Part shown: positions 16,285 to 57,630 of the stretch, one piece after another
How the letters are laid out: each line of letters begins with the position of its first letter
How positions within the stretch are numbered: the stretch's first letter is position 1
NCBI RefSeq assembly: GCF_037969725.1
Contig: NZ_CP150203.1
Span: forward strand, 2,124,001 to 2,188,000
DNA: 64,000 bases
DNA from: Paenibacillus sp. FSL W8-0426
GTDB taxonomy: Bacteria; Bacillota; Bacilli; Paenibacillales; Paenibacillaceae
Reading direction: 5' to 3'
Translations under genes and position numbers: made by a program
The notes under the pieces: generated by a model
What the model was told of the DNA's origin: nothing
The model's database searches: none
Seen by the model: only the letters and a program-made list of their open reading frames with translations

Positions 16285-16510
16285 CTGGAGAAGCGAAGCG
16301 TTCGCTGAAAGCTTTCTGAAAGAAAGCTGCATCGGAAGCATAGGCTTATCACCGGATTTTCCCCTTAGAAAAGGGGAATCAAAAAATCTGGGGATAACAG
16401 CGATCGGAAGATGGTACTGCACTCGCAGTGCCTTGTGTGATTGTTAGTGCGGTAAAGAGAAAGTCGACTTTCGAAGCAACACGAGGCGGCAAAGCGATTC
16501 GAAAGGAAAG
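16285..16510. other. Hairpin-dense noncoding segment, possible structured RNA
   Basis: Within the 636-bp gap between the permease gene and the sensor kinase gene are consecutive inverted repeats with short loops: AGCGAA-gcg-TTCGCT (16292-16306), AGCTTTCT-gaa-AGAAAGCT (16310-16328), TTCCCCTT-agaa-AAGGGGAA (16359-16378) with outer arms CCGGATTTT/AAAATCTGG, GGTACTGC-actc-GCAGTGCC (16413-16432), the palindrome GAAAGTCGACTTTC (16459-16472) and CTTTCGAA/TTCGAAAG (16468-16505). None has a terminator T run on the plus strand and no gene fits here. The strand is unknown. It does not match a riboswitch consensus I can recall. Confidence 0.5.
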
Positions 16511-16651
16511 TCACCATAATGTTCAGAAACAGGTCACGGAATGACATAGACAATGAACAATGACCGTGATTACAATGAAACATGCCATAAAAGGAAGGAA
16601 ATTGCAGATGCCGTACATTCGAGGTTGACATGCCCTGCGTACAGGCACTTT

Positions 16652-24125: not shown

Positions 24126-24818
24126 GTGTCGAGGGCAAGGCTGGTCTGTTCCGCAATATTGTTGATGTTTGCGATTATGTTTACGTTCAAGCATCATCTG
24201 GGTTATTCCGTGGGGGATACGATATTGTCGCATTTAGGGGTGTCCCCGTATACCAAGTCCTATATCAGCGGCGTGCACGTTACGTTTTTTGTCGGCATAG
24301 GGCTGATATGGTGCGGATATTATGTTGTGCGCAGAGAGTTGATGCAGGCCTACCCTCGTTTGGCAAAGAAACTATGGCTGGTCGTCCTTCTTGTTATTGT
24401 TAGCTACCCCTACGTCAGCGACAAAATGATGTATTTGACCAAATGGGGCGCAACCGGCATGGATGGTGTGTATTTCGTTCGGGACGAGAGTTCCTGCATC
24501 TACAACGTTCAAGAGAGCGGCGTGACCGGAGCGGCGTGCACGATTACGCTTAAAAACTACGGCAGACATGATGTAAGCGTGGCGCTCAAGCCGGATCTGG
24601 CTCGTACGTATGGAAATCAGGATGACCCGTTGTTTAATACGTTAAACTCGGTGGAGCTTAGCCCGGTGCATCTGGATCTAAAGGCACATGCCGCATTTAG
24701 CGGCAGATTAGTGTTTAAGGGGCAAGCCAAGGCGCCTTTTCAAGTGGGTGGGCGGCTGACGGATATCGTGTTCGACGTCACGGCCGAGGGAAAAGATATT
24801 GTATTGGAAGAACCTTGA
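24126..24818 (+). CDS. Membrane protein of unknown function
   Basis: 230 residues; GTG start at 24126, five bases after GGGGGTG. A TATAAT lies about 30 bases upstream of the start. Three hydrophobic segments fill the first 105 residues (around 6-24, 50-68 and 83-102); the remaining 125 residues are hydrophilic and beta-rich, with two Cys (CIYNVQESG and ACTITL) and a Thr/Gly-rich end. No family is recognised. The tail may be extracytoplasmic and fold like an immunoglobulin domain (SPVHLDLKAHAAFSGRLVFK), but that is a guess. It lies alone between the two sugar clusters. Confidence 0.65.
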   Translation: MSRARLVCSAILLMFAIMFTFKHHLGYSVGDTILSHLGVSPYTKSYISGVHVTFFVGIGLIWCGYYVVRRELMQAYPRLAKKLWLVVLLVIVSYPYVSDKMMYLTKWGATGMDGVYFVRDESSCIYNVQESGVTGAACTITLKNYGRHDVSVALKPDLARTYGNQDDPLFNTLNSVELSPVHLDLKAHAAFSGRLVFKGQAKAPFQVGGRLTDIVFDVTAEGKDIVLEEP

Positions 24819-24915: not shown

Positions 24916-24943
24916 AGAGCTGGCTGCGGCCGGCTCTTTTTTT
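24916..24943 (+). terminator. Terminator before cluster 2
   Basis: AGAGCTGGC (24916-24924), loop TGCG, GCCGGCTCT (24929-24937), then a T run. It isolates cluster 2 from the upstream gene. Confidence 0.85.
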
Positions 24944-24957
24944 CGTACGACCGGAAG

Positions 24958-24990
24958 TTGTATTAAGTGCAGAAATATTGGTTTTGTCGC
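24958..24990 (+). promoter_or_regulatory. Tandem direct repeat, candidate regulator site before kinase 2
   Basis: TTGTATTAAGTGC (24958-24970) and TTGGTTTTGTCGC (24978-24990) start exactly 20 bases apart. The same arrangement occurs before the binding protein and permease genes of this cluster. A poor TATATA lies at 25020. Confidence 0.55.
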
Positions 24991-25155
24991 CTTTAACCGC
25001 TTATTGACAACGCTTACCCTATATAGAGACCGCTGCCATGGAAAGGAATAAAGGGGCATGGGTCCTTCAAGAAGGCCGAAAAAAGGAATTGTAATTGGCT
25101 TTGGCATCGCTAAAATAGAATACACTGACAAATTAAGCTAAGGTGAGATGAGAAA

Positions 25156-26940
25156 ATGTCGTACCGGACGAACTTGTTTTCCAAAATGATGATACTGATC
25201 TTGATCATGCTGATTCCGGTCGTGCTGCTATATGGGTATTCCAACCATAAAACGACTGCCGTGCTTCGCGCCGAATTAAACCGTTCCAACAGCACCCAGC
25301 TCGAATTTTTTCAAAATCAGGTCAATACGCATTTCGAGCTGCTGTCCTCGTGGCCCAACCTGCTGATTCACGATCCGGATATCTCGAGCTTTCGCCGGAT
25401 TTACGTCGACAGTGAATACTTTGACCTGGACATGATCAATTTGGTCAAACGCATTCAAAAAAAGCTCAGCATCCAAGAGAGCTCGTCCAACTGGACGACC
25501 AAACTGTATCTATACTCCCCTTCACTGGGCAGGGTGGTGTCGGAACGGGATGCCCGTTCCTATGATCCGAAATCGCTTCAGGGCAACATTGCGACAGGTT
25601 GGAACGTGCGAAAAGTCGAGGAGGGCGAAGATACCAAATTTGTGTTCAGTTGGATTACGTCTTCGCCGTATTGGATCAACGACCCGGCTCAAAATGCCGA
25701 AACGCTGATCAAGCTTGAGTTCAACAGCGACAATATCCGGGATATGCTGGACAAGTTCAAAGGAGATGGACGCCACGATCCCTTTTATTATCGCGAAGAC
25801 ATGGGCGTCGTATATAACCGGACGTCGGATCGCGAGTTGACGGGTGAACTGATCCGGGAGCTATCTTTCGACAAGCTCAAAAACGTGGACAGCCGGACCG
25901 TCGTCATCGATGGCGAGCCCTATATGGTAAATACGGTGAAATCCCGAACGACCGGATTTTATCTGGTGGATTACATGCCGCTGTCCGATATTTTAAAACC
26001 GATCCATCAATCGAACACGCTGTTCTATGGCTCGATGATCTTTTTGTTGATCACCGGCGCCCTCGTCGCCTATTTGCTGTACGTACAGGTACAGATGCCG
26101 GTCAAACAGCTGATCCGCGGTTTCCAGCGACTGAAGCAGGAGGATTATTCCGTACGGATCAAACCCAAGGGCAAAAACGAGTTCAGCTTTCTGTCCGAAC
26201 GGTTCAATTCCATGGTGGAAAAAATACAGCAGCTGTTCGAGCATGTCTATCTCGAGCAGATCCATGTGCGGGAAGCGCGCTTGAAACAGCTGCAATCGCA
26301 GATCAATCCGCACTTTTTTTATAATTGCTTCTCGTTCATCACTAGCATGGCGAAGCTGAAGCGCGTGGATGCCGTCGTGGCTATGTCCCACAACCTGTCG
26401 AGATATTATCGGTACACGACCCGGCAGGAACGCGATCTGGTCCCTCTCAGGGAAGAGATCGAATTTGTGACGTGTTATCTGGAAATTCAACAAATGCGCA
26501 TGGAGCGAATCCGCTATACGGTAGAATTGCCGGATCGTTTGCTCGGGCAGGACGTGCCCCCGCTGATCGTGCAGCCGCTCGTCGAGAACGCGGTGATTCA
26601 CGGCATCGAAACAGACGCTGAAGCCGGCCAAATCCGGGTTTCCGGCGAGATCCGGAACGGACTGATGGTGTTGGCTGTGGAGGATGACGGGCAGGGCATG
26701 GATGAGCTTGCTCGCGCAGAGCTGCAGCATAAACTGACGGGCGCAATGGATCAGGAGATGGGCTGCGGTCTTTGGAACGTGAACCAGCGCCTGCAGCTCA
26801 AGTACGGCGACCGGGCTGGCATGAGCATTGCGGAATCGCCGCTTGGCGGACTGAAAGTGACCTTATTCTGGCCTGCTTCCGATGGCGAGTTATTCGACGA
26901 AATGGAGAGGCAGCATGGACAAGCGGAGTTAGACGAGTAA
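25156..26940 (+). CDS. YesM-type sensor histidine kinase (cluster 2)
   Basis: 594 residues, ATG 25156 after AAGGTGAGATG. Membrane spans at about 10-27 and 288-309 bracket an extracellular sensor of about 260 residues; HAMP follows (to about 363). Phospho-acceptor His386 is in SQINPHFFYN and the HATPase has ENAVIHGIE and DDGQGMD. It pairs with the response regulator 42 bases downstream. Its linkage to a galactanase and a beta-galactosidase makes galactan-derived oligosaccharides the probable signal. It resembles the cluster 1 kinase in layout but diverges strongly in the sensor region. Confidence 0.92.
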   Translation: MSYRTNLFSKMMILILIMLIPVVLLYGYSNHKTTAVLRAELNRSNSTQLEFFQNQVNTHFELLSSWPNLLIHDPDISSFRRIYVDSEYFDLDMINLVKRIQKKLSIQESSSNWTTKLYLYSPSLGRVVSERDARSYDPKSLQGNIATGWNVRKVEEGEDTKFVFSWITSSPYWINDPAQNAETLIKLEFNSDNIRDMLDKFKGDGRHDPFYYREDMGVVYNRTSDRELTGELIRELSFDKLKNVDSRTVVIDGEPYMVNTVKSRTTGFYLVDYMPLSDILKPIHQSNTLFYGSMIFLLITGALVAYLLYVQVQMPVKQLIRGFQRLKQEDYSVRIKPKGKNEFSFLSERFNSMVEKIQQLFEHVYLEQIHVREARLKQLQSQINPHFFYNCFSFITSMAKLKRVDAVVAMSHNLSRYYRYTTRQERDLVPLREEIEFVTCYLEIQQMRMERIRYTVELPDRLLGQDVPPLIVQPLVENAVIHGIETDAEAGQIRVSGEIRNGLMVLAVEDDGQGMDELARAELQHKLTGAMDQEMGCGLWNVNQRLQLKYGDRAGMSIAESPLGGLKVTLFWPASDGELFDEMERQHGQAELDE

Positions 26941-26982
26941 CGATGAAATCAAACATGACGATACAGACAGGGAGTGACGAAG

Positions 26983-28602
26983 GTGATCGACATTTTGCTG
27001 GTGGATGATGAAACGTATGTGACGGAAAGTCTGGAAATGACCATTCCGTGGGGAGAGCTTGGCGTAACGACCGTGCTGCGCGCGGCTTCGGGAAACGAAG
27101 CGCTGCGGATTCTGGAAGAAAACGCAGTGGACGTCGTGGTCACCGACATCCGCATGCCTGGCATGACGGGGTTGGAACTGATCGCTGAGATCGGCAGCCG
27201 CTGGCCGCACATTCGCTGCATTTTGCTTACAGGACATAGTGATTTCGAATATGCAAAGAGGGCCATTCAGCTGCAGGCTGCAGACTACATCCTCAAGCCG
27301 GTGAACGACGACGAGTTCATGTCTTCCGTTACGGCTGCCATTACGGCGCTGCGCGGGGAATGGGATGAATTCGACAAATACCACAGACTGCTCTACAGCC
27401 GCAAGTCGGACTACAAAATTTTGCGGGAAAATTTGATGCACGATCTGCTGTTGGGGCGCGAAATGACAACCAAGGCGCTTGGCGAACAGTTGTCCGAATA
27501 CGAAATTCCGCTTCAGCCGGACAAGCCGTCGGTCATGATGCTGATCCGTCTGACGGGACGGTTCGCGGCCATGGATCAGCAATCGCTCGACCTGATGGAT
27601 TTTGCCGTCGGCAATATCGCCGAGGAAGTGTTCGGGCAGCAATTCAACGTATGGTTCGCACGGGGACCGCACGACTGCCTCGTCATGCTGATACAGGACC
27701 CGAAAGGAACGGAAGGACCGTTGGAAGCGTCCGAATTAAAGACATGGGCCGCAAAGTTCCGCGAACATGTCATCCGTTATTTGCAGGGAGATCTGTTCCT
27801 TGTCGCCACCTCGCCTTTTCCATTCGGCGAATTGCCGGTCGTTTACCGCAAAAGCCTAGGTTCATTGGTACTGTCCGGCCCGGATCAGGATGCCATCGTT
27901 TTGCTGGAAAAAGACATGGACAAGCGGCCGGAGAACGATGCGGCGCAAGTGTTGGAGGAATTGTACAAACCGCCGATGCTGCCCCAATTGTTGGAAACGA
28001 AGCAATGGGATGAGGCCGCCCGCAAACTGAACGCGGTTTTTGATGCCGCTGAACGGGTTCGGCTCGCAAGGGAGCACGTTTACGAGATGTATTTGTCGGT
28101 CACGAACGCTTTTATGTACATTGCGCATAAACAAGGCCATTTGGTGCATGAAATCGATCATGCGGGCTTTGATCTTCTGCTTGCGCATCAACTGATCCAA
28201 TCGCCGGAGCGATTGCGCCGCTGGGCGATGGAAATGCTGGCCAAGCTGCAGGAGGAACTGTCCGACCAGGATGGCACGCAGAGCCGCAGGCATGTGATCA
28301 AACAAGTGCAGGAATTGGTGGCAAGGGATGCGGGACAAGAGCTGTCCGTCAAGATGATCGCCGACAAGGTCTACTTGCATCCCGTCTATCTGTCCAAAAT
28401 CTACAAGGCGGAGACCGGCGAAGGCTTGGGCGACTACATGATCCGGATGCGAATGGAGCGCGCGCTGTATTTGCTCAAACACACAAACAAAAAAATATAC
28501 GAGATCACCAGCGAGCTGGGGTATCAAAATCCCCAATATTTCAGCAAAATGTTCAAAAAACATTACGGTATGACCCCCAACGAATTCAGGGACCAGGCAT
28601 AA
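26983..28602 (+). CDS. YesN-type response regulator with AraC domain (cluster 2)
   Basis: 539 residues from GTG 26983, eight bases after GGGAG; a GTG three codons earlier overlaps that site. The receiver has phospho-acceptor Asp55 in VVTDIRMPG and the conserved Thr and Lys (LLTGHS, ILKPV). The C-terminal AraC domain has two helix-turn-helix motifs (KVYLHPVYLSKIYKAETG; GYQNPQYFSKMFKKHYG). AraC-type dimers recognise direct repeats about two helical turns apart, exactly what is found at three promoters of this cluster, including that of its own kinase operon. Positive autoregulation is therefore likely. Confidence 0.92.
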   Translation: MIDILLVDDETYVTESLEMTIPWGELGVTTVLRAASGNEALRILEENAVDVVVTDIRMPGMTGLELIAEIGSRWPHIRCILLTGHSDFEYAKRAIQLQAADYILKPVNDDEFMSSVTAAITALRGEWDEFDKYHRLLYSRKSDYKILRENLMHDLLLGREMTTKALGEQLSEYEIPLQPDKPSVMMLIRLTGRFAAMDQQSLDLMDFAVGNIAEEVFGQQFNVWFARGPHDCLVMLIQDPKGTEGPLEASELKTWAAKFREHVIRYLQGDLFLVATSPFPFGELPVVYRKSLGSLVLSGPDQDAIVLLEKDMDKRPENDAAQVLEELYKPPMLPQLLETKQWDEAARKLNAVFDAAERVRLAREHVYEMYLSVTNAFMYIAHKQGHLVHEIDHAGFDLLLAHQLIQSPERLRRWAMEMLAKLQEELSDQDGTQSRRHVIKQVQELVARDAGQELSVKMIADKVYLHPVYLSKIYKAETGEGLGDYMIRMRMERALYLLKHTNKKIYEITSELGYQNPQYFSKMFKKHYGMTPNEFRDQA

Positions 28603-28628
28603 ATGTCATCTTTCATTCGTCATATAGG

Positions 28629-28691
28629 TTGCATAAGGTGCAGAAATCTTGTTTTCGTGACATAGGCTGAAAGCCTTGGCACACCTATAAT
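28629..28691 (+). promoter_or_regulatory. Binding protein promoter with tandem direct repeats
   Basis: TTGCATAAGGTGC (28629-28641) and TTGTTTTCGTGAC (28649-28661) start 20 bases apart. A perfect TATAAT follows at 28686-28691, 37 bases after the start of the second repeat. No good -35 is present, which fits an activator bound next to RNA polymerase. Confidence 0.6.
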
Positions 28692-28727
28692 GAAAGGGTA
28701 ACCAAAATGATCGAAGGGGGAACAACA

Positions 28728-30413
28728 ATGAGAGCGAATTCTACGAAAAAGAGATGGCTGTCGCTTCTCGCCACAACAACCTGTCTGGCCGTCGTTCTGG
28801 CCGGATGCGGAGGGGGCAATGGCAGCGGTGATAGCGCAAGCTCAAGCTCGTCTGCCACCCAAAATGAATACAAAGAAAAATATGATCCGGAAGTGACCAT
28901 TTCCACGGTATGGGGGATCGATCCGGAGCTGAAATTCAAAAACGGGGAATCCATTGAAAATAGCGTAGCTACCAAATGGGCCAAGGAAAAATTCGGGATC
29001 AACATCAATTCGCTGTGGTCCGTGACCGACACCAACGGTGCGTTTGCAACCAAGCTGCGGCTCGCGATGTCCTCCGGCCAAGAGATGCCGGATGTCGTTA
29101 CCGTCGGGGATAACCTGCTTGCCCAGGATTTGATCGATTCCGGCATGTATCAAGAAGTGGGTCCGTTGTTCGACAAATACGCATCTGATACATGGAAAAA
29201 AGCGATGGAACAGGATCCCAACGTATGGAACCAATACATGCGCGACGGCAAACGCATGGGGATCCCGGTACTCGATTATGCGTACAACAACGACTACCTG
29301 CTCTGGATTCGCCAAGACTGGCTCGACAAGTTGAACATGGAAGCTCCAAAAACGATTGACGAATTAGAGACTGTTATGGAAGCGTTTAAAAACAAAAATC
29401 CGGACGGCCTTGCACCGGATAAAGTGACGCCGCTCAGCATCGGATTCAAAACATCCATGAACACCTGGATGGGGGATCCTTCCTGGATCTTCGGTGCATA
29501 CGGCACGCTGCCGTTCCAGTGGAATGAAAGCGCAGACGGCAAGCTGGAATACGGGTCCATCCACCCGGGCATGAAAGAAGGTTTGGTCAAACTGAGCGAA
29601 TGGCTGAAAAAAGGCTACATTCCTCAGGAAGCGGCGCTGTGGGACGAAAATAAAACCGCAGAGCCTGCGGTTGCCGGCACGGCGGGGATTATTCCAGGTC
29701 CGTACTGGATGAGCGGTTGGCCATTGAAAGACACGGTTAAAAACGCTCCGGGCGCGGTATGGAAACCGATTCAGATTCCGACAGGCCCGGATGGCAAAGC
29801 GATGCGTCATGGCACGCCGTTCGTCAATGGCGTCATCTTGATCAAAAAAGACATGGAGCATCCGGAAGCGTTCTTTACCTATGAGAATTACCTGTTCGAC
29901 AACTACGCCAACCCTGAACCGGGCAGCCCTTACGATAACGGCTTGTTCGAAGGGTATGATTATCAGCTGGACGCCAACGGCAAACAACTGCCGATCGAAG
30001 AAATCGACGGCGGTTATGTCAATGTCGTTCGCTATCTGCTCGTTCGCGACGGCGCACGCATTCCCGATGCACAGATGAAAGCACTGCTTAACCTTGCGGA
30101 CGGCAAAGAGCCGGAAACGAAGCTGGAGAAGGACGTTGCCGTCAACTACGGCAGCGAAACGCCTGCGGCAGCCAAAGTGCTGCTTTCCCAAGAAGATATT
30201 TCGTACAAAAACATGTTTACCGGTCCTACGACCCAAACGATGAAGTCGAAACTGGATTACCTGAACAAAATCGAGAATCAGGCATTCAACGAAATCATCT
30301 ATGGAAAAAGTCCGGCCGATGCGTTCGACACGTTCGTGCAAACGTGGAAATCGGGCGGCGGCGACCAGATTACCCAAGAGGTCAACGATTGGTATGCTAG
30401 CGTGAAAAAATAA
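28728..30413 (+). CDS. LplA-type sugar-binding lipoprotein (cluster 2)
   Basis: 561 residues from ATG 28728, six bases after GGGGGA; an in-frame ATG seven codons earlier overlaps the ribosome site. The signal peptide ends in the lipobox LAGC and a Ser/Gly-rich linker follows. The rest is a large solute-binding protein of the LplA/YtcQ kind (LWSVTDTNGAFATKLRLAMS, MPDVVTVGDNLL, WIRQDWLDKLNM). By context it captures galacto-oligosaccharides from pectic galactan for the permeases downstream. It has its own promoter and a strong terminator, so it can be made in large excess over the permeases. Confidence 0.9.
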   Translation: MRANSTKKRWLSLLATTTCLAVVLAGCGGGNGSGDSASSSSSATQNEYKEKYDPEVTISTVWGIDPELKFKNGESIENSVATKWAKEKFGININSLWSVTDTNGAFATKLRLAMSSGQEMPDVVTVGDNLLAQDLIDSGMYQEVGPLFDKYASDTWKKAMEQDPNVWNQYMRDGKRMGIPVLDYAYNNDYLLWIRQDWLDKLNMEAPKTIDELETVMEAFKNKNPDGLAPDKVTPLSIGFKTSMNTWMGDPSWIFGAYGTLPFQWNESADGKLEYGSIHPGMKEGLVKLSEWLKKGYIPQEAALWDENKTAEPAVAGTAGIIPGPYWMSGWPLKDTVKNAPGAVWKPIQIPTGPDGKAMRHGTPFVNGVILIKKDMEHPEAFFTYENYLFDNYANPEPGSPYDNGLFEGYDYQLDANGKQLPIEEIDGGYVNVVRYLLVRDGARIPDAQMKALLNLADGKEPETKLEKDVAVNYGSETPAAAKVLLSQEDISYKNMFTGPTTQTMKSKLDYLNKIENQAFNEIIYGKSPADAFDTFVQTWKSGGGDQITQEVNDWYASVKK

Positions 30414-30420
30414 GCTTTGC

Positions 30421-30455
30421 AGCGCGCGGAACTCGGCTTCCGCGCGCTTTTTTTT
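30421..30455 (+). terminator. Strong terminator between binding protein and permease genes
   Basis: AGCGCGCGGAA (30421-30431) pairs perfectly with TTCCGCGCGCT (30438-30448), followed by eight T. Confidence 0.95.
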
Positions 30456-30538
30456 GCGCATGCTTCCGAGGGCGGAAACGACTTGGAACGCGGATAAAGG
30501 CGGGTTTTTCCCCTTTTTGTGCCGATGCCCGAAAGTGG

Positions 30539-30602
30539 TTGCTTTTGTGCCATTTATATTGCTTTTATGTGCTGTTTGAGCGTCCGGACAGGTTGATATA
30601 AT
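30539..30602 (+). promoter_or_regulatory. Permease operon promoter with tandem direct repeats
   Basis: TTGCTTTTGTGC (30539-30550) and TTGCTTTTATGTGC (30559-30572) start exactly 20 bases apart. TATAAT follows at 30597-30602, 38 bases after the second repeat begins, almost the same geometry as at the binding protein gene. The -35 region is poor. Confidence 0.65.
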
Positions 30603-30659: not shown

Positions 30660-31550
30660 ATGAGAACATTGAAACGAACTTGGCCATTTCACGTAATGCT
30701 GCTGCCGGCCGTCATCTTTCTGATCATTTTCAGTTATGTGCCGATGGGCGGCATCGTGATGGCTTTCCAAAATTACAAACCTTGGTTGGGCATCGGCGGG
30801 TCAGAGTGGGTAGGACTCGACAATTTCCGCTTTTTATTCGAACGCGAGGATAGCCTTCAGGTCATCTGGAATACGCTGATTATCGCGGTGCTGAAACTGA
30901 TCTTTAACCTGGCGGTGCCGTTTGTGTTCGCCATTCTGCTGAACGAGGTGCGCAAGATCGCCATACAACGGTCCATCCAGACGTTGGTGTATTTGCCCCA
31001 TTTTCTGTCATGGGTCATCCTGGGCGGCATCCTGATCGACCTCCTGTCCAACGAGGGCTTAGTGAATCGGGTGCTCGGCACATTTGGATTGGGTCCTTAC
31101 TTTTTCCTCGGCGATAATAATTGGTTCCGGTTTACGGTCATCCTGACCGACGTATGGAAAGAATTCGGGTACAACACGATCGTGTTTCTGGCAGCACTCG
31201 CAGGCATCAATCCGGCCTTGTACGAAGCGGCTGAAATCGACGGGGCGGGACGCTGGAAACAAACGCTCCATATTACGGTTCCTTCGCTCGTGCCGATGCT
31301 GATGGTCGTGGGAACGCTGGCGCTCGGAAACGTGCTTAACGCAGGCTTCGACCAAATCTTCAACCTGTACAACCCGCTGGTCTACCAAACAGGCGACATC
31401 ATCGATACGTTCGTGTACCGCTCGGCGATGGTGAACGGCGAGATGGGCTTTGCGACCGCGATCGGATTGTTCAAATCGGTCATCAGCATGATCCTGATCC
31501 TCGTATCCTACGGCTTGGCCAAAAAATACGCCGGATACCGCATATTCTAA
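30660..31550 (+). CDS. LplB-type sugar ABC transporter permease (cluster 2)
   Basis: 296 residues, ATG 30660 preceded by GGGGGAG. Six spans and the EAA loop EAAEIDGAGRWKQTLHITVP mark it as a carbohydrate importer permease of the LplB/YteP type. It pairs with the permease 30 bases downstream and probably shares a genomically distant MsmX-like ATPase, since no ATPase gene is in the cluster. It is the first gene of an operon that continues through the galactanase and beta-galactosidase genes. Confidence 0.9.
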   Translation: MRTLKRTWPFHVMLLPAVIFLIIFSYVPMGGIVMAFQNYKPWLGIGGSEWVGLDNFRFLFEREDSLQVIWNTLIIAVLKLIFNLAVPFVFAILLNEVRKIAIQRSIQTLVYLPHFLSWVILGGILIDLLSNEGLVNRVLGTFGLGPYFFLGDNNWFRFTVILTDVWKEFGYNTIVFLAALAGINPALYEAAEIDGAGRWKQTLHITVPSLVPMLMVVGTLALGNVLNAGFDQIFNLYNPLVYQTGDIIDTFVYRSAMVNGEMGFATAIGLFKSVISMILILVSYGLAKKYAGYRIF

Positions 31551-31580
31551 TCGAATCGAACAGAGAAAGAAGGGACTACG

Positions 31581-32459
31581 ATGTATCATAAATCAACGCC
31601 GTACCGCGTGTTCAGCATAGTCAATACTTGCTTCCTGATCCTGCTCGCCATCATGTGCATCATTCCGCTCATCCACGTGCTGGCCGTATCGTTCAGCACG
31701 AAGGCGGCAGCGGATGCGAACCTGGTAAGCCTCTGGCCGGTCGGATTCTCGCTGGAAGCGTACAAAAAAACGATGAACAATCCGATTTTCCTCAACTCGC
31801 TCTGGATTTCGCTGCTCCGCACGGTGGTAGGCACGGGGATCACGCTCCTCATTACCTTTTTGGCAGCTTATCCCCTGTCGAAGGAAAATAGTGAATTTAA
31901 AGGAAGAACGATCTATTCATGGCTGTTTGTTTTCAGTATGATTTTCAATGGAGGATTGGTACCGTTCTACATGGTCATCCAGAAGATCGGCCTGATGAAC
32001 TCCTTCTGGGTTCTGGTACTTCCCGGCGCCGTTAACACGTTCCTCGTCATCCTGATGCTGAACTTTTTCCGGGGCATCCCGAAAGAGCTGGAAGAAGCGG
32101 CACTGATCGATGGCGCGAATCATTTTCGGACGCTGTTCAGCATCTTCCTGCCAATCTCCATGCCGTCCATTGCGACGATTGCGCTGTTCAGCATGGTATT
32201 CCACTGGAATTCCTGGTTCGACGGATTGCTCTACCTGAACAACGCCAAAGATTATCCGCTCGCGACCTTCCTGCAGACGGTGATCATCGGACGGGACATG
32301 AGCACGATGAGCATGGATCCGAAGGAGATGGATGCGATCTCGCAAACGACCGTGCGCGCAGCGCAAATTTTCATCGGAAGCGCGCCGATCCTGATCGTGT
32401 ATCCGTTCCTGCAGCGTTTCTTTGTTAAAGGCATGACCCTGGGCTCAGTGAAAGGCTGA
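31581..32459 (+). CDS. YtcP/LplC-type sugar ABC transporter permease (cluster 2)
   Basis: 292 residues, ATG 31581 with AGAAGGG upstream. Six spans and the EAA-type loop EAALIDGANHFRTLFSIFLP; it ends in the family hallmark PFLQRFFVKGMTLGSVKG, nearly the same as in the cluster 1 counterpart. Together with the previous gene it forms the membrane channel that brings galacto-oligosaccharides to the two cytoplasmic hydrolases downstream. Confidence 0.9.
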   Translation: MYHKSTPYRVFSIVNTCFLILLAIMCIIPLIHVLAVSFSTKAAADANLVSLWPVGFSLEAYKKTMNNPIFLNSLWISLLRTVVGTGITLLITFLAAYPLSKENSEFKGRTIYSWLFVFSMIFNGGLVPFYMVIQKIGLMNSFWVLVLPGAVNTFLVILMLNFFRGIPKELEEAALIDGANHFRTLFSIFLPISMPSIATIALFSMVFHWNSWFDGLLYLNNAKDYPLATFLQTVIIGRDMSTMSMDPKEMDAISQTTVRAAQIFIGSAPILIVYPFLQRFFVKGMTLGSVKG

Positions 32460-32496
32460 GCCCGGTATTTCCGAAAATGCGATGGAGGTTGATGAA

Positions 32497-33573
32497 GTGA
32501 GTAACCACAAGGAACAGCCGTTCATTCTTGGCATGGACGTGTCTTTCATGGACGAAATCGAACAGCACGGCGGCAGTTACAGCGACGTGGACGGCAAAGA
32601 ACAGGATCTGCTGTCCATCCTGAAATTGAATGACGCCAATGCAATCCGTTTGCGGATCTGGAATGATCCTGTCGGCGGTTATTGCAACCTGGAACGCACG
32701 GTGGAGATCGCAAAGCGGATCAAGGCGCACGGCCTGCATTTCCTGCTGGATTTCCACTATTCGGATCGCTGGGCGGACCCGGCCAACCAATGGAAGCCGA
32801 AGGCATGGGAAAGCTTGTCCTATGAGGAGCTGCAGCGGGCAGTATGCACGTACACGGCCGATGTGCTGAACACGCTGAAGGATAATGGCGCCCTGCCGGA
32901 CATGGTGCAGGTCGGCAACGAGATCACGCCCGGCATGCTCTGGAACGAAGGCCGTGTTGGCGGAGAAGAGAACGATACCGATGAGCAATGGGAGCGGTTT
33001 GCCGGTCTTGTGAAGTACGGCATCGCGGCAGTGAAGTCGGTGGACGCGAACATTCAGGTCATGATTCATATCGACCGCGGGGGAGACAATGCCGAGAGCG
33101 TGAAGTTTTATGACCGTTTCGAGCAGCTTGGCGTGGAATTCGACGTCATCGGCCTCTCGTTCTATCCATGGTGGCACGGCACGCTGGAGGCATTGCGCGA
33201 TAACCTGCACGACCTGGCCGCGCGTTACGGCAAACCGATCAACGTGGTTGAAACCGCTTATCCTTGGACGCTGGAGCAGCCGGAAGGGCACGAATGGATC
33301 TTCAATCAGGAAGAGATGCTGCTGCCAGGATATCCCGCAACGGTGGAAGGACAGCGCAAATACTTGCAGGACTTCCTGCAAATCATCCGCGACGTGCCGG
33401 GCGGGCTGGGAGCCGGATTCTATTATTGGGAGCCCGCCTGGATTCCGAGCAAACCGGATTGGTCCGTGGGACATCCGAACAATTGGGGCAACCTGACGAT
33501 GTTTGATTTCAAAGGACGCAAGCTGGAATCGTTCTCGGCGTTATCGACCGTACGCGAACAGCCAGCGACGTAA
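32497..33573 (+). CDS. ganB: GH53 endo-beta-1,4-galactanase lacking a signal peptide
   Basis: 358 residues from GTG 32497, seven bases after GGAGGT; an ATG at 32482 overlaps that site. It is a GH53 TIM barrel: GMDVSFM at the N-terminus, LRIWNDP, LDFHYSDRWADP, acid/base Glu142 in QVGNEITPGMLW and nucleophile Glu252 in NVVETAYPW. The family hydrolyses beta-1,4-galactan of type I arabinogalactan. Bacterial GH53 enzymes such as B. subtilis GanB are normally secreted, but this one starts directly at the barrel with polar residues (SNHKEQPF) and has no signal peptide with either start. It therefore probably trims imported oligosaccharides in the cytoplasm before the GH42 enzyme acts. Confidence 0.9.
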   Translation: MSNHKEQPFILGMDVSFMDEIEQHGGSYSDVDGKEQDLLSILKLNDANAIRLRIWNDPVGGYCNLERTVEIAKRIKAHGLHFLLDFHYSDRWADPANQWKPKAWESLSYEELQRAVCTYTADVLNTLKDNGALPDMVQVGNEITPGMLWNEGRVGGEENDTDEQWERFAGLVKYGIAAVKSVDANIQVMIHIDRGGDNAESVKFYDRFEQLGVEFDVIGLSFYPWWHGTLEALRDNLHDLAARYGKPINVVETAYPWTLEQPEGHEWIFNQEEMLLPGYPATVEGQRKYLQDFLQIIRDVPGGLGAGFYYWEPAWIPSKPDWSVGHPNNWGNLTMFDFKGRKLESFSALSTVREQPAT

Positions 33574-33615
33574 TCGTGGGCAACATCAAGAAACGCGAAA
33601 AGGAGAGTTGTACTC

Positions 33616-35688
33616 ATGACATATAAATATTCACCCGCAAGTTCCAAAGTGCCGCATATGCTGCATGGTGCCGATTATAATCCAGAGCAGTGGCTTCGTT
33701 ATCCCGAGGTGCTTGAAGAAGACATCCGTCTGATGAAGCTGGCCAAATGCAACGTCATGTCCATCGGTATCTTCTCATGGGTTTCCCTTGAGCCGGAGGA
33801 AGGGGTTTATACGTTTGAATGGCTGGACCGTATTTTGGATGCGTTTGCAGCGGAAGGCATTTATGCCTTTTTGGCTACGCCGAGCGGAGCGAGACCGGCC
33901 TGGATGTCGGCGAAATATCCCGAAGTGCTGCGGGTAGGGGCTAACCGCGTGCGCAATTTGCACGGTTTCCGGCATAACCACTGTTATACTTCCCCGGTAT
34001 ATCGGGAAAAAGTGAACCAAATGAATACCAGGCTGGCTGAGCGGTATGCCGATCATCCGGCTGTCATTGGATGGCATATTTCCAACGAGTACGGCGGGGA
34101 CTGCCACTGCGATCATTGTCAGGAAGCATTCCGCGGCTGGGTGCAAAAGAAATACGGCACGCTGGACGAATTGAATCACGCCTGGTGGACGACATTTTGG
34201 AGCCACACGATCACGGATTGGAGCCAGGTCGAATCCCCTGCGCCGCACGGGGAAACCCAAGTGCATGCGATGAATCTGGATTGGCGCCGCTTCGTGACGG
34301 ATCAAACCGCCGATTTCATCGTGCATGAGACCAAGCCGCTCAAAGCGAAAAATCCGAATCTGCCGGTAACGACCAACCTGATGGAGTTCTATGAAGGGCT
34401 TAACTATTGGAAGTTTGCCGACATTCTTGATGTCCTGTCCTGGGACAGCTACCCGACGTGGCATGATGCCGACGATGATGCCAAGCAGGCCGCGCGCATC
34501 GGCATGATGCATGATATCGTGCGTTCCATCAAGGGAGGGCAGCCGTTCCTGCTCATGGAGAGCACCCCGAGTTCCACCAACTGGCAGGATGTCAGCAAAC
34601 TGAAACGCCCCGGCATGCATCTTCTATCCTCCTTGCAGGCGGTAGCGCACGGTTCGGACAGCGTGCAGTACTTCCAGTGGAGAAAAAGCCGCGGCTCAAG
34701 CGAGAAGCTGCATGGCGCGGTCGTGGATCATGCCGGGCATGAGCATACCCGCGTGTTCAAGGATGTCTCGGATGTGGGCACCGTGCTGGAAGGCATGGAT
34801 GCCATCGTCGGAACGTCCGTGCCGGCAGAAGTTGCCATCATTTTCGATTGGGAGAATCGTTGGGCCGTCAAAGATTCCCAAGGTCCGCGCAACATTGGCG
34901 TGAAGTACGAGGAAACGGTGCAGAGCCACTATGAAGCGTTTTGGAAAAAAGGCGTGGCGGTCGACGTGATTGACATGAATGCCGACCTGTCCAAGTACAA
35001 GCTGTTGATCGCGCCGATGCTGTACCTGATGCGGGAAGGCGTAGGAGAGCGAATCGAACGGTTTGTGGAGAACGGAGGCACGTTCGTGGCCACGTATTGG
35101 TCCGGCATCGTCAACGAGAACGATCTTTGCTTCCTGGGTGGATTCCCGGGCCCGCTTCGCAAAACGCTCGGCATCTGGTCGGAGGAAATCGACGGCTTGC
35201 ACGATCGCGACCGGAACGGGATGACCCCGCTGGAAGGGAACGAACTGGGGCTGGACGCATCGTACGATGCGGTGGAATTGTGCGACCTTATTCACCTCGA
35301 AGGTGCGGAGGCGCTCGGAACATATCGCTCGGATTTCTACGCGGGCAGACCGGCATTGACGGTCAACCGTCTGGGCTCCGGCAAGGCGTATTACATCGCG
35401 GCCCGTTTCACGGAACCGTTCCATGACGATTTCTACGGCAGGCTCATCCGTGACCTGAACATCGAGAAGGCATTGGATACCGAGCTTCCGGCCGGAGTAA
35501 CGGCCCATGTGAGAACCGACGGCACGGCAGACTACGTCTTTGTACAGAATTACACGCCTGACAGCAAACAGGTCGGGTTGGGCAGCCTGTCTTATACCGA
35601 CTTGTTGACCGATGAACCGGTGGAATCCAATCTGGAATTGAAACCATACGACATTTGCGTTTTGCGCAGAGCGGCGGAGCGTGTCTAA
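33616..35688 (+). CDS. ganA: GH42 beta-galactosidase
   Basis: 690 residues, ATG 33616 after AAGGAGAG. It is a full-length GH42 enzyme: catalytic TIM barrel with acid/base Glu158 in HISNEYGG and nucleophile Glu315 in LLMESTPS, a Cys cluster (123, 163, 165, 168) matching the structural zinc site of the family, then the trimerisation domain and a small C-terminal beta domain. There is no signal peptide. GH42 enzymes release galactose from short beta-1,4-galactan chains, so it completes the galactan pathway started by GH53. It is the last gene of the operon, 42 bases after the galactanase. Confidence 0.95.
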   Translation: MTYKYSPASSKVPHMLHGADYNPEQWLRYPEVLEEDIRLMKLAKCNVMSIGIFSWVSLEPEEGVYTFEWLDRILDAFAAEGIYAFLATPSGARPAWMSAKYPEVLRVGANRVRNLHGFRHNHCYTSPVYREKVNQMNTRLAERYADHPAVIGWHISNEYGGDCHCDHCQEAFRGWVQKKYGTLDELNHAWWTTFWSHTITDWSQVESPAPHGETQVHAMNLDWRRFVTDQTADFIVHETKPLKAKNPNLPVTTNLMEFYEGLNYWKFADILDVLSWDSYPTWHDADDDAKQAARIGMMHDIVRSIKGGQPFLLMESTPSSTNWQDVSKLKRPGMHLLSSLQAVAHGSDSVQYFQWRKSRGSSEKLHGAVVDHAGHEHTRVFKDVSDVGTVLEGMDAIVGTSVPAEVAIIFDWENRWAVKDSQGPRNIGVKYEETVQSHYEAFWKKGVAVDVIDMNADLSKYKLLIAPMLYLMREGVGERIERFVENGGTFVATYWSGIVNENDLCFLGGFPGPLRKTLGIWSEEIDGLHDRDRNGMTPLEGNELGLDASYDAVELCDLIHLEGAEALGTYRSDFYAGRPALTVNRLGSGKAYYIAARFTEPFHDDFYGRLIRDLNIEKALDTELPAGVTAHVRTDGTADYVFVQNYTPDSKQVGLGSLSYTDLLTDEPVESNLELKPYDICVLRRAAERV

Positions 35689-56935: not shown

Positions 56936-57382
56936 TTATTCCCCCTGAGTGTCTATTCGTTGAAGGTTGCGGTTGATGAGGGAGAGAACAGTTTTGAATG
57001 TTTCCATTTGCTCTTCCGGAATGTCGGCGGCGAGGATATCATTCATTCCTTTTTCAATCGGAATCAATTGGTCGAGCAATGCCCTGCCGTCTTCGGTAAG
57101 ATAAAGAAGGTATGCCCTGCGATCCTGCTTGCTGGTGCGGCGTTCGACCATCCCTTTTTTTTCTAAAAGATCGATGATGCGGGCAGTCGTGGGCTGGTCT
57201 TTGCACACACGGGCAGCAAGCTCCTTCTGGTTGACCCCTTCCCCCCGGCCAATGTTAAACAGCACAGAGAATTGCTCTGTCGTGATGTCGTACGGCTTGA
57301 ATCGATTGGCAAGAACGACAGCAGCCTTTCGATGGGTTAATCCCATGAGAAAACCGACAGATTGGTCCAGTGAATATTCCAT
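56936..57382 (-). CDS. MarR-family repressor of an efflux operon
   Basis: 148 residues from ATG 57382, first gene of a two-gene operon with the MFS transporter. Winged helix: FSVLFNIGRGEGVNQKELAA, recognition CKDQPTTARIIDLLEKKG and the wing RRTSKQDRRAYLLYLTEDG. Dimerisation helices lie at both ends. A consensus promoter with a palindrome at its start site is found just upstream, so autorepression is likely. It differs clearly from the MarR at 8583. Confidence 0.92.
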   Translation of the reverse strand: MEYSLDQSVGFLMGLTHRKAAVVLANRFKPYDITTEQFSVLFNIGRGEGVNQKELAARVCKDQPTTARIIDLLEKKGMVERRTSKQDRRAYLLYLTEDGRALLDQLIPIEKGMNDILAADIPEEQMETFKTVLSLINRNLQRIDTQGE

Positions 57383-57428: not shown

Positions 57429-57468
57429 TTGTTGCAACAATTATATGTTGACTAAGTAGTTTTGTCAA
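57429..57468 (-). promoter_or_regulatory. Consensus sigma-A promoter with palindromic operator for marR-MFS
   Basis: On the minus strand TTGACA (57463-57468), 17-base spacer, TATAAT (57440-57445), both hexamers perfect. The 12-base perfect palindrome TTGTTGCAACAA (57429-57440) covers the transcription start, and the repeat TTGAC/GTCAA spans the spacer. Tight repression by the MarR product is implied. Confidence 0.85.
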
Positions 57469-57630
57469 AGCAAATTTATGCAAAGTGCACCATGCGATGG
57501 CAAGCAAAGCCTGTTACAATGTAAATGTGCATCCGCGCGCTGATAAGCCTCCGAACCTACCCAGACATGCAGATGGACAAATTCGATCCGCACCGGTCAA
57601 TTTGAACCGGGGAGTAAAAGGAGATACGTT

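What the first reader, a model, noticed from the sequence alone, without database searches (positions are those of the whole stretch)
24958..30602. A shared 20-bp-spaced direct repeat marks three promoters of the galactan cluster
Upstream of kinase 2, the binding protein gene and the permease operon there are six copies of a TTGnWTWWnGTGC-like element in three pairs, each pair exactly 20 bases apart (24958/24978, 28629/28649, 30539/30559). At the last two the second copy begins 37 and 38 bases before a perfect TATAAT with a poor -35. AraC-family domains bind direct repeats about two turns apart next to RNA polymerase, and the cluster encodes such a regulator (26983-28602). I found no equivalent in cluster 1, which has its own regulator. 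This looks like a readable operator code for one YesN-type regulator.
Basis: partly seen in the sequence, partly recalled or inferred. Interest (0 to 1): 0.8.

Follow-up and report, generated by a model that had tools for sequence, protein, structure and literature searches.

The report
Shared operator of a galactan regulator
Three promoters of a Paenibacillus galactan-use gene cluster, and those of two distant galactan-cutting enzyme genes, carry the same conserved DNA element, very probably the landing site of the cluster's own regulator, which makes a whole regulon testable.

Summary
The conserved unit is a ~40-bp island. A profile of the kinase promoter ranks exactly the three sites 1, 2 and 3 of 127,922 window positions. 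The binding-protein site is found in all 56 orthologous clusters examined, with the -10 37 (50) or 38 nt (6) after the second copy. Its core, searched in 84,980 genomes, hits 47 places, all beside this regulator's gene. A cluster-specific operator of the linked YesN-type regulator, placed as for AraC-type class II activation, is very likely; binding is untested.

Beyond the finding: the same element, with the same -10 distance, precedes this genome's two other GH53 galactanase genes, 2.1 and 3.6 Mb away, and is conserved there, though their scores are modest. Cluster 1 is not empty: it has its own GTCAC repeat, 23 nt apart, also 38 nt before the -10. A wider code for YesN paralogues fits two systems and only partly a third, predicted in advance.

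The parts
24957..24995 (+). operator of the kinase-regulator unit; copies start at 24958 and 24978
   Evidence: site found in 25 of 61 kinase upstream regions
25015..25020 (+). weak -10-like TACCCT, 37 nt after the second copy, overlapping a cre-like AACGCTTAC (25009-25017)
   Evidence: inferred function
25089..25116 (+). second, proximal promoter candidate of the kinase unit (TTGTAA-16-TAAAAT)
   Evidence: consensus match only; 5 such sites found, 9.1 expected in shuffles
25156..26940 (+). sensor kinase (His_kinase PF06580, HAMP, HATPase_c), YesM type
28627..28666 (+). operator of the binding-protein gene; copies start at 28629 and 28649
28686..28691 (+). -10 TATAAT, 37 nt after the second copy
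28707..30413 (+). solute-binding protein gene (position and neighbours; no Pfam or NCBIfam hit)
   Evidence: role inferred from neighbours
30421..30455 (+). terminator-like hairpin between binding-protein gene and permease operon
30537..30578 (+). operator of the permease-GH53-GH42 operon; copies start at 30539 and 30559
30597..30602 (+). -10 TATAAT, 38 nt after the second copy
30660..35688 (+). two permeases, GH53 galactanase, GH42 beta-galactosidase
16510..16576 (+). cluster 1's own operator: GTCAC repeat 23 nt apart, second copy 38 nt before TACAAT (for comparison)

Best explanation
The repeats are the operator of the cluster's own two-component pair. Shown by sequence: one ~40-bp element, with TT(G)-started copies 20 nt apart, stands with its second copy 37-38 nt before the -10 of the binding-protein gene, the permease-GH53-GH42 operon and (weak -10) the kinase-regulator unit, and, in more divergent form, before the genome's two unlinked GH53 galactanase genes. 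Inferred: a galactan breakdown product, alone or with the binding protein, triggers the kinase; the phosphorylated regulator binds as a dimer, each double-HTH domain covering one copy, the nearer copy over the poor -35, and recruits RNA polymerase (class II activation). That switches on uptake, cleavage inside the cell, secreted galactanases and, in the close clade, the regulator itself. Where a cre-like box overlaps the -10 (kinase and some galactanase promoters), CcpA may shut the unit off on better sugars.
For: Three sites are one motif. Site in 56 of 56 orthologous clusters, including other families of the order. Islands: identity to the window 0.81/0.95/0.85 inside (binding-protein, permease, kinase) against 0.29/0.33/0.30 above and 0.39/0.49/0.48 below. 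Fixed distance to the -10. Specific: own genome 2 of 2 hits at <=3 mismatches; 77 of 78 hits in 99 genomes at binding-protein or kinase promoters; 40 of 40 permease-type hits downstream of the binding-protein gene; 47 of 47 hits in 84,980 genomes beside the regulator gene. Both HTH recognition regions kept in 56 aligned orthologues. GH53 promoters.
Against: No binding or expression data. The inner repeat is weak in the binding-protein promoter taken alone, and the permease site is far from it in sequence. The kinase site is found in only 25 of 61 and the permease site in 32 of 60 regions. L089 keeps YQNPQYF in its second helix but shows no such site. GH53 scores are modest: p 0.0017 against 573 window segments, 0.018 against 168 AT-rich ones in this genome, and some orthologues are no better than AT-rich chance.
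Confidence: 0.82

Rival explanations
1. Another, unlinked regulator (or that of cluster 1) reads the operator, and the linked pair controls something else.
For: Nothing here shows binding; the genome has dozens of regulators of this kind (40 matches to the cluster 1 regulator in G000).
Against: 47 of 47 pattern hits worldwide sit beside this regulator's gene. Cluster 1 has its own, different operator.
Confidence: 0.1
2. The islands are core promoter or RNA polymerase contact sequence (for instance an alternative sigma factor or an UP-like element), not a regulator site.
For: They lie next to -10 boxes and part of the binding-protein island (CATAGG) is where a -35 would be.
Against: A core element would recur at many promoters; these do not. 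Conservation reaches about 57 nt above the -10 and the spacer between island and -10 is not conserved.
Confidence: 0.04
3. The regulator represses rather than activates from this site.
For: The nearer copy overlaps the -35 region; the kinase promoter has a second promoter candidate further down.
Against: The -35 is poor at both perfect -10 boxes, as expected of activated promoters, and the 37-38 nt distance is kept.
Confidence: 0.08
4. Only the cluster sites are real; the two GH53 promoters resemble them by chance.
For: Modest scores; the first was picked from 14 pattern hits, the second from being a GH53 gene.
Against: Both are islands in relatives, with the -10 at 37/38 in 29 of 30 and 13 of 16 promoters (orthologues are not independent). 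49 other cre-like -10 sites score -10.5 or lower at the same two offsets.
Confidence: 0.15

Closest known systems
XylS/Pm of Pseudomonas putida (AraC/XylS family); PMC5481539, passages seen
   Same: Two direct repeats, each with a 5' and a 3' box read by two recognition helices; operator overlaps the RNA polymerase site
   Different: Boxes TGCA and GGTA there, TT(G) and GTG-like here; XylS binds its inducer itself and is no response regulator
AraC I1-I2 of Escherichia coli (recalled)
   Same: Direct repeats about two turns apart, the nearer at the -35, class II activation
   Different: Sequence; ligand-bound regulator without receiver domain; spacing 21 (recalled) against 20
XydS/XydR of Clostridium cellulolyticum; PMC3572039, passages seen
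   Same: Receiver plus AraC-HTH regulator beside its kinase, controls plant-polysaccharide genes, one of them unlinked
   Different: Common direct and inverted repeats are listed there but no consensus site; own genes reported not regulated, whereas here the kinase unit carries the operator in the close clade
Pneumococcal YesNM and TCS07; PMC11034029, passages seen
   Same: Same regulator kind, site sought by comparing upstream regions of relatives
   Different: No clear repeat found for YesN; a CTWWWWWWAG candidate for RR07, unlike this element
ganSPQAB of Bacillus subtilis; PMC5472308, search listing only
   Same: Galactan uptake and cleavage operon
   Different: Controlled there by a LacI-type repressor GanR (recalled), not by a two-component pair

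Membership tests
YesM/YesN-type two-component pair | regulator with receiver and C-terminal AraC-type double HTH | tested here: met
   Response_reg 7-119 and HTH_18 462-540; conserved-looking Asp in VVTDIRMPG (by eye)
YesM/YesN-type two-component pair | adjacent kinase of the His_kinase (PF06580) type with HAMP | tested here: met
YesM/YesN-type two-component pair | phosphotransfer between the two | not testable with these tools
   needs biochemistry
AraC/XylS-type direct-repeat (class II) operator | two direct repeats about two helical turns apart | tested here: met
   joint profile best shift 20, p 0.0007 uncorrected; weak in the binding-protein promoter alone
AraC/XylS-type direct-repeat (class II) operator | nearer repeat at the -35, fixed distance to the -10 | tested here: met
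   37 or 38 nt in 56 of 56 binding-protein and 32 of 32 permease promoters; kinase promoter ambiguous
AraC/XylS-type direct-repeat (class II) operator | bound by the regulator and activates | not testable with these tools
   needs footprint and reporter
General YesN operator frame (TT copies 20 nt apart, second 37/38 nt before the -10) | present in other YesMN sugar systems | tested here: inconclusive
   091 system 10 of 10 and 092 permease promoter 8 of 8 (seen after the fact); third system, predicted beforehand: TTA at 57 in 8 of 8 but TTA at 37 in 2 and CTA in 6 of 8; cluster 1 repeats at 23 nt

The most novel reading that the evidence does not exclude
YesN-type regulators of several paralogous sugar importers share one operator frame (TT-anchored copies 20 nt apart, the second 37-38 nt before the -10), in which the first HTH, nearly constant (HPVYLSK), reads the near-constant TT anchor and the second HTH reads a system-specific box. 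The sites of the many such regulators in Paenibacillus could then be predicted from protein sequence, and unlinked targets found as the two galactanase genes were here.
Probability: 0.2. Interest if true: 0.7.

Novelty: new member of a known kind. Interest (0 to 1): 0.5.

Why it matters
Paenibacillus genomes carry many regulators of this kind beside sugar importers, and the passages I could read on relatives report no clear consensus site. Here one site is defined well enough to propose a five-promoter regulon, including two galactanase genes millions of bases away that gene neighbourhood alone would not connect, and each prediction can be tested with a gel shift or a reporter.

Tried and rejected
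TTGnWTWWnGTGC as an exact code: rejected, 2 of 6 copies. A loose pair pattern with one mismatch in the own genome gave 8 hits against 7 for the reversed control, so weak patterns do not discriminate. A broader pattern drawn partly from the large-GH53 site, so circular for it, gave 2 exact hits (kinase and large-GH53 sites) but 73 in all with one mismatch against 36 controls; the one-mismatch hits were not followed.

Generic pattern TTR-N17-TTG-N34/35-TATAAT: 14 hits against 3 reversed controls, of which 3 known and 1 the small GH53; for the other 10 only the nearest ORF was looked at. Cre-like -10 sites as a route to more targets: 74 found, 49 distinct ones in fetched DNA scored, none positive; the rest were not fetched. 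Rfam: nothing in the window at gathering score.

Third paralogous system as a test written down beforehand: from the alignment I first read it as a plain failure; the recount shows TTA at 57 nt in 8 of 8 but TTA at 37 in only 2 of 8 (CTA in 6), and its first helix is HPVYVSK, not HPVYLSK, so I call it partly met, and raised the odds of the novel reading slightly for that reason.

Rows and limits: the 5 fetched loci without the binding-protein site (L088, L089, L091, L092, L098) were set apart as paralogous systems after (regulator 35-40% identical), not beforehand. The binding-protein expression was widened after viewing, with one alternative for the degenerate site of L086. Clusters with diverged sites are missed by the pattern (for example G009, G018, G030). 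For the small GH53, 30 loci of 42 genomes with a match were examined. L287 and L288, a different shorter GH53, were dropped from the large-GH53 set; L276, L283 and L289 are its three misses. L141 is the cluster 1 sequence that the pattern missed (22 nt apart in the alignment); the more distant cluster 1 relatives L153-L160 were not scored. L381 and L382 were fetched and not used.
Full report
CHECK OF THE OBSERVATION. The six places are as stated: TTG starts at 24958/24978, 28629/28649, 30539/30559, pairs 20 nt apart, and TATAAT begins 37 and 38 nt after the second copy at the last two. The printed consensus is too strict: only 24958 and 28629 match it, and none of the other four appears even with one mismatch. 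The GTG part floats by one or two bases between copies.

SETTING. The window is G000:C1:2124001-2188000 of a 6.9-Mb single-contig genome. A named record, Paenibacillus sp. JJ-223, encodes a binding protein 99.8% and a regulator 99.6% identical. Genes: sensor kinase 25156-26940, response regulator 26974-28602 (receiver plus AraC HTH), binding protein 28707-30413 (no domain hit), two permeases, GH53 galactanase and GH42 beta-galactosidase to 35688. Terminator-like hairpins stand before the kinase operator (near 24918-24943) and after the binding-protein gene (30421-30455), so the operators probably head separate units; the terminator scan itself is weak evidence (19 found, 12.8 expected in shuffles).

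CONSERVATION. I fetched 60 loci; 55 hold orthologous clusters (regulator at least 46% identical) and 5 more distant paralogous systems. In the close clade the promoters stand out as islands. More distant members, including other families of the order, keep the binding-protein site in the form GTTGnnAAAGGTGCAGAAATnTT...CATAGG. By pattern the binding-protein site is in 56 of 61 regions (window included), the 5 others being the paralogous systems; the kinase site in 25 of 61; the permease site in 32 of 60. Mean identity to the window over distinct sequences (41, 21, 23) is 0.81, 0.95 and 0.85 inside the binding-protein, permease and kinase operators, 0.29, 0.33 and 0.30 in the 40 nt above, 0.39, 0.49 and 0.48 in the spacer below. 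The -10 lies at 37 (50) or 38 (6) nt in 56 binding-protein promoters and at 38 (31) or 37 (1) in 32 permease promoters. At the kinase promoter it is unclear: TACnnT at 37/38 in 25 of 25, but the best match to TATAAT is there in only 10 of 25.

ONE MOTIF, AND ITS REPEAT. The kinase profile scores the three sites as ranks 1, 2 and 3 of 127,922 positions; the permease profile puts the kinase site second and the binding-protein site 17th; the binding-protein profile puts the kinase site second and the permease site 103rd. The kinase site thus links two that differ much. The joint profile's best self-shift is 20 (z 3.3, p 0.0007 uncorrected), then 9, as expected if each protein touches two successive grooves (inference).

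SPECIFICITY. A strict pattern with up to 3 mismatches hits only the kinase and binding-protein sites in the whole genome, with no control hit. In 99 genomes a core pattern gives 78 hits: 56 at the binding-protein promoter, 21 at kinase distance, 1 elsewhere, inside an RHS-repeat-like frame. The permease pattern gives 40 hits in 40 genomes, all on the same strand and 70-213 nt past the binding-protein gene, except one at 1192. In 84,980 species genomes the core pattern gives 47 exact hits, 44 named Paenibacillus and 3 Cohnella; all 47 stretches encode the regulator, 45 with the binding-protein start 62-120 nt downstream, and in 2 that gene is not in the stretch, whose end is near.

THE REGULATOR. 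In 56 aligned orthologues the HTH motifs HPVYLSK and ELGYQNPQ(Y/H)FSK are kept; cluster 1's regulator and those of the paralogous loci differ, mostly in the second helix, though L089 keeps YQNPQYF. This is association, not binding.

UNLINKED TARGETS. I turned the geometry alone into a pattern, TTR-N17-TTG-N34/35-TATAAT: 14 hits in the genome against 3 reversed controls. Three were known; one stands before a 349-aa GH53 enzyme with a signal-peptide-like start, 3.6 Mb along the contig (G000:C1:5708164-5709210). Its promoter keeps GTTnnnAAAACAnCCAAAATATTGnAAAnnnACCCTnTAG in 21 of 21 close orthologues, sharing AAATATTG with the kinase operator. The third GH53 gene (1462-aa frame; F5/8 type C, Big_4 and GH53 domains in the 683 aa read; 2.1 Mb away) has GTTGCAATAACTGCTGTTTCCTTTG before GCGCTTACAAT, the core AATAACTGCTGTTT kept in 12 of 12 aligned. 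With a profile made only from the three cluster promoters, the best upstream hit has its -10 (best of offsets 34-42) at 37/38 in 29 of 30 small-GH53 and 13 of 16 large-GH53 promoters; the register is uncertain by one base where a copy reads TTT (one search gives 39 for L275 and L276). Scores are modest: 11.7 and 12.0 in this genome, p 0.0017 against 573 window segments and 0.018 against 168 AT-rich ones, and several orthologues reach only 0.16-0.26 against the latter. As a control, 49 other sites of this genome with a cre-like box over a -10 score -10.5 or lower at the same two offsets (a fixed-place score, not a best-of-region one). A search with the small enzyme lists three GH53 matches in this genome: the cluster one in the permease operon and these two.

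CLUSTER 1 AND PARALOGUES. Cluster 1 has an operator too: GTCAC repeats 23 nt apart, the second 38 nt before TACAAT, in 12 of 13 sequences by pattern, z 4.6 for the 23-nt shift (window 16510-16576). Two paralogous systems of the same genome show a conserved TTG 37 nt before TATAAT and a TT 20 nt above it, in 10 of 10 and 8 of 8 sequences (noticed after the fact). For a third I wrote the prediction first: TTA at 57 nt in 8 of 8, but at 37 nt TTA in 2 and CTA in 6 of 8. The wider frame is suggestive and unproven.

MECHANISM. Two direct repeats, the nearer at a poor -35, as in XylS/Pm (PMC5481539 passages) and AraC (recalled). I infer dimer binding and class II activation; phosphorylation as trigger follows from the domain make-up. 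At the kinase promoter the weak -10 overlaps a conserved ACGCTTAC (25 of 25) that resembles a CcpA cre box (recalled), and a proximal promoter candidate follows, so control there may be mixed.

LITERATURE. Passages of PMC3572039 state that no consensus site could be identified for this family; passages of PMC11034029 find no clear repeat for pneumococcal YesN. Searches listed no paper on this operator; passages of PMC4765114 list an S-layer-type GH53 in Paenibacillus sp. JDR-2 but no operator. The library holds open-licence papers only, so an earlier description elsewhere (for example for Geobacillus relatives, recalled) is possible.

VERDICT. A specific, conserved operator prediction, extended to a likely five-promoter regulon; a new member of a known kind.

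Noticed in passing
window 16510-16576: Cluster 1's own operator, a GTCAC repeat 23 nt apart ending 38 nt before TACAAT, conserved in relatives.
   Followed up: partly
window 24126-24818: ORF between the two clusters without Pfam or NCBIfam hit, found at 49-56% identity in 27 of the 60 loci, at the same place.
   Followed up: partly
window 25009-25017; GH53 promoters L263, L265, L269-L272: A cre-like CGCTTAC box overlaps the -10 region at the kinase promoter and at several galactanase promoters: possible joint control by CcpA (motif recalled).
   Followed up: partly
L063 (G043), between binding-protein and permease genes: The gap is 1.3 kb instead of about 0.25 kb and foreign-looking sequence ends right above the operator, which stays with the permease gene.
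   Followed up: no
L090 (G059): The orthologous cluster looks broken: partial matches for regulator, binding protein, GH53 and GH42; described only.
   Followed up: no
window 57440-57503, minus strand: One of the generic pattern hits lies 57 nt before a 148-aa ORF (56936-57382) that looks MarR-like by eye; probably chance.
   Followed up: no
L370-L376, L378, upstream of the permease gene: A long conserved island (ATATTAACAATTTGTTAT...TTATCATGTTGAC) marks the operator of a third YesMN system.
   Followed up: partly
L092, L171, L173-L179, two promoters: The 092 system shares one element, CAAYAT...CnTTGAAAT..TG, between its permease promoter and its binding-protein promoter, a second multi-promoter operator.
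   Followed up: partly
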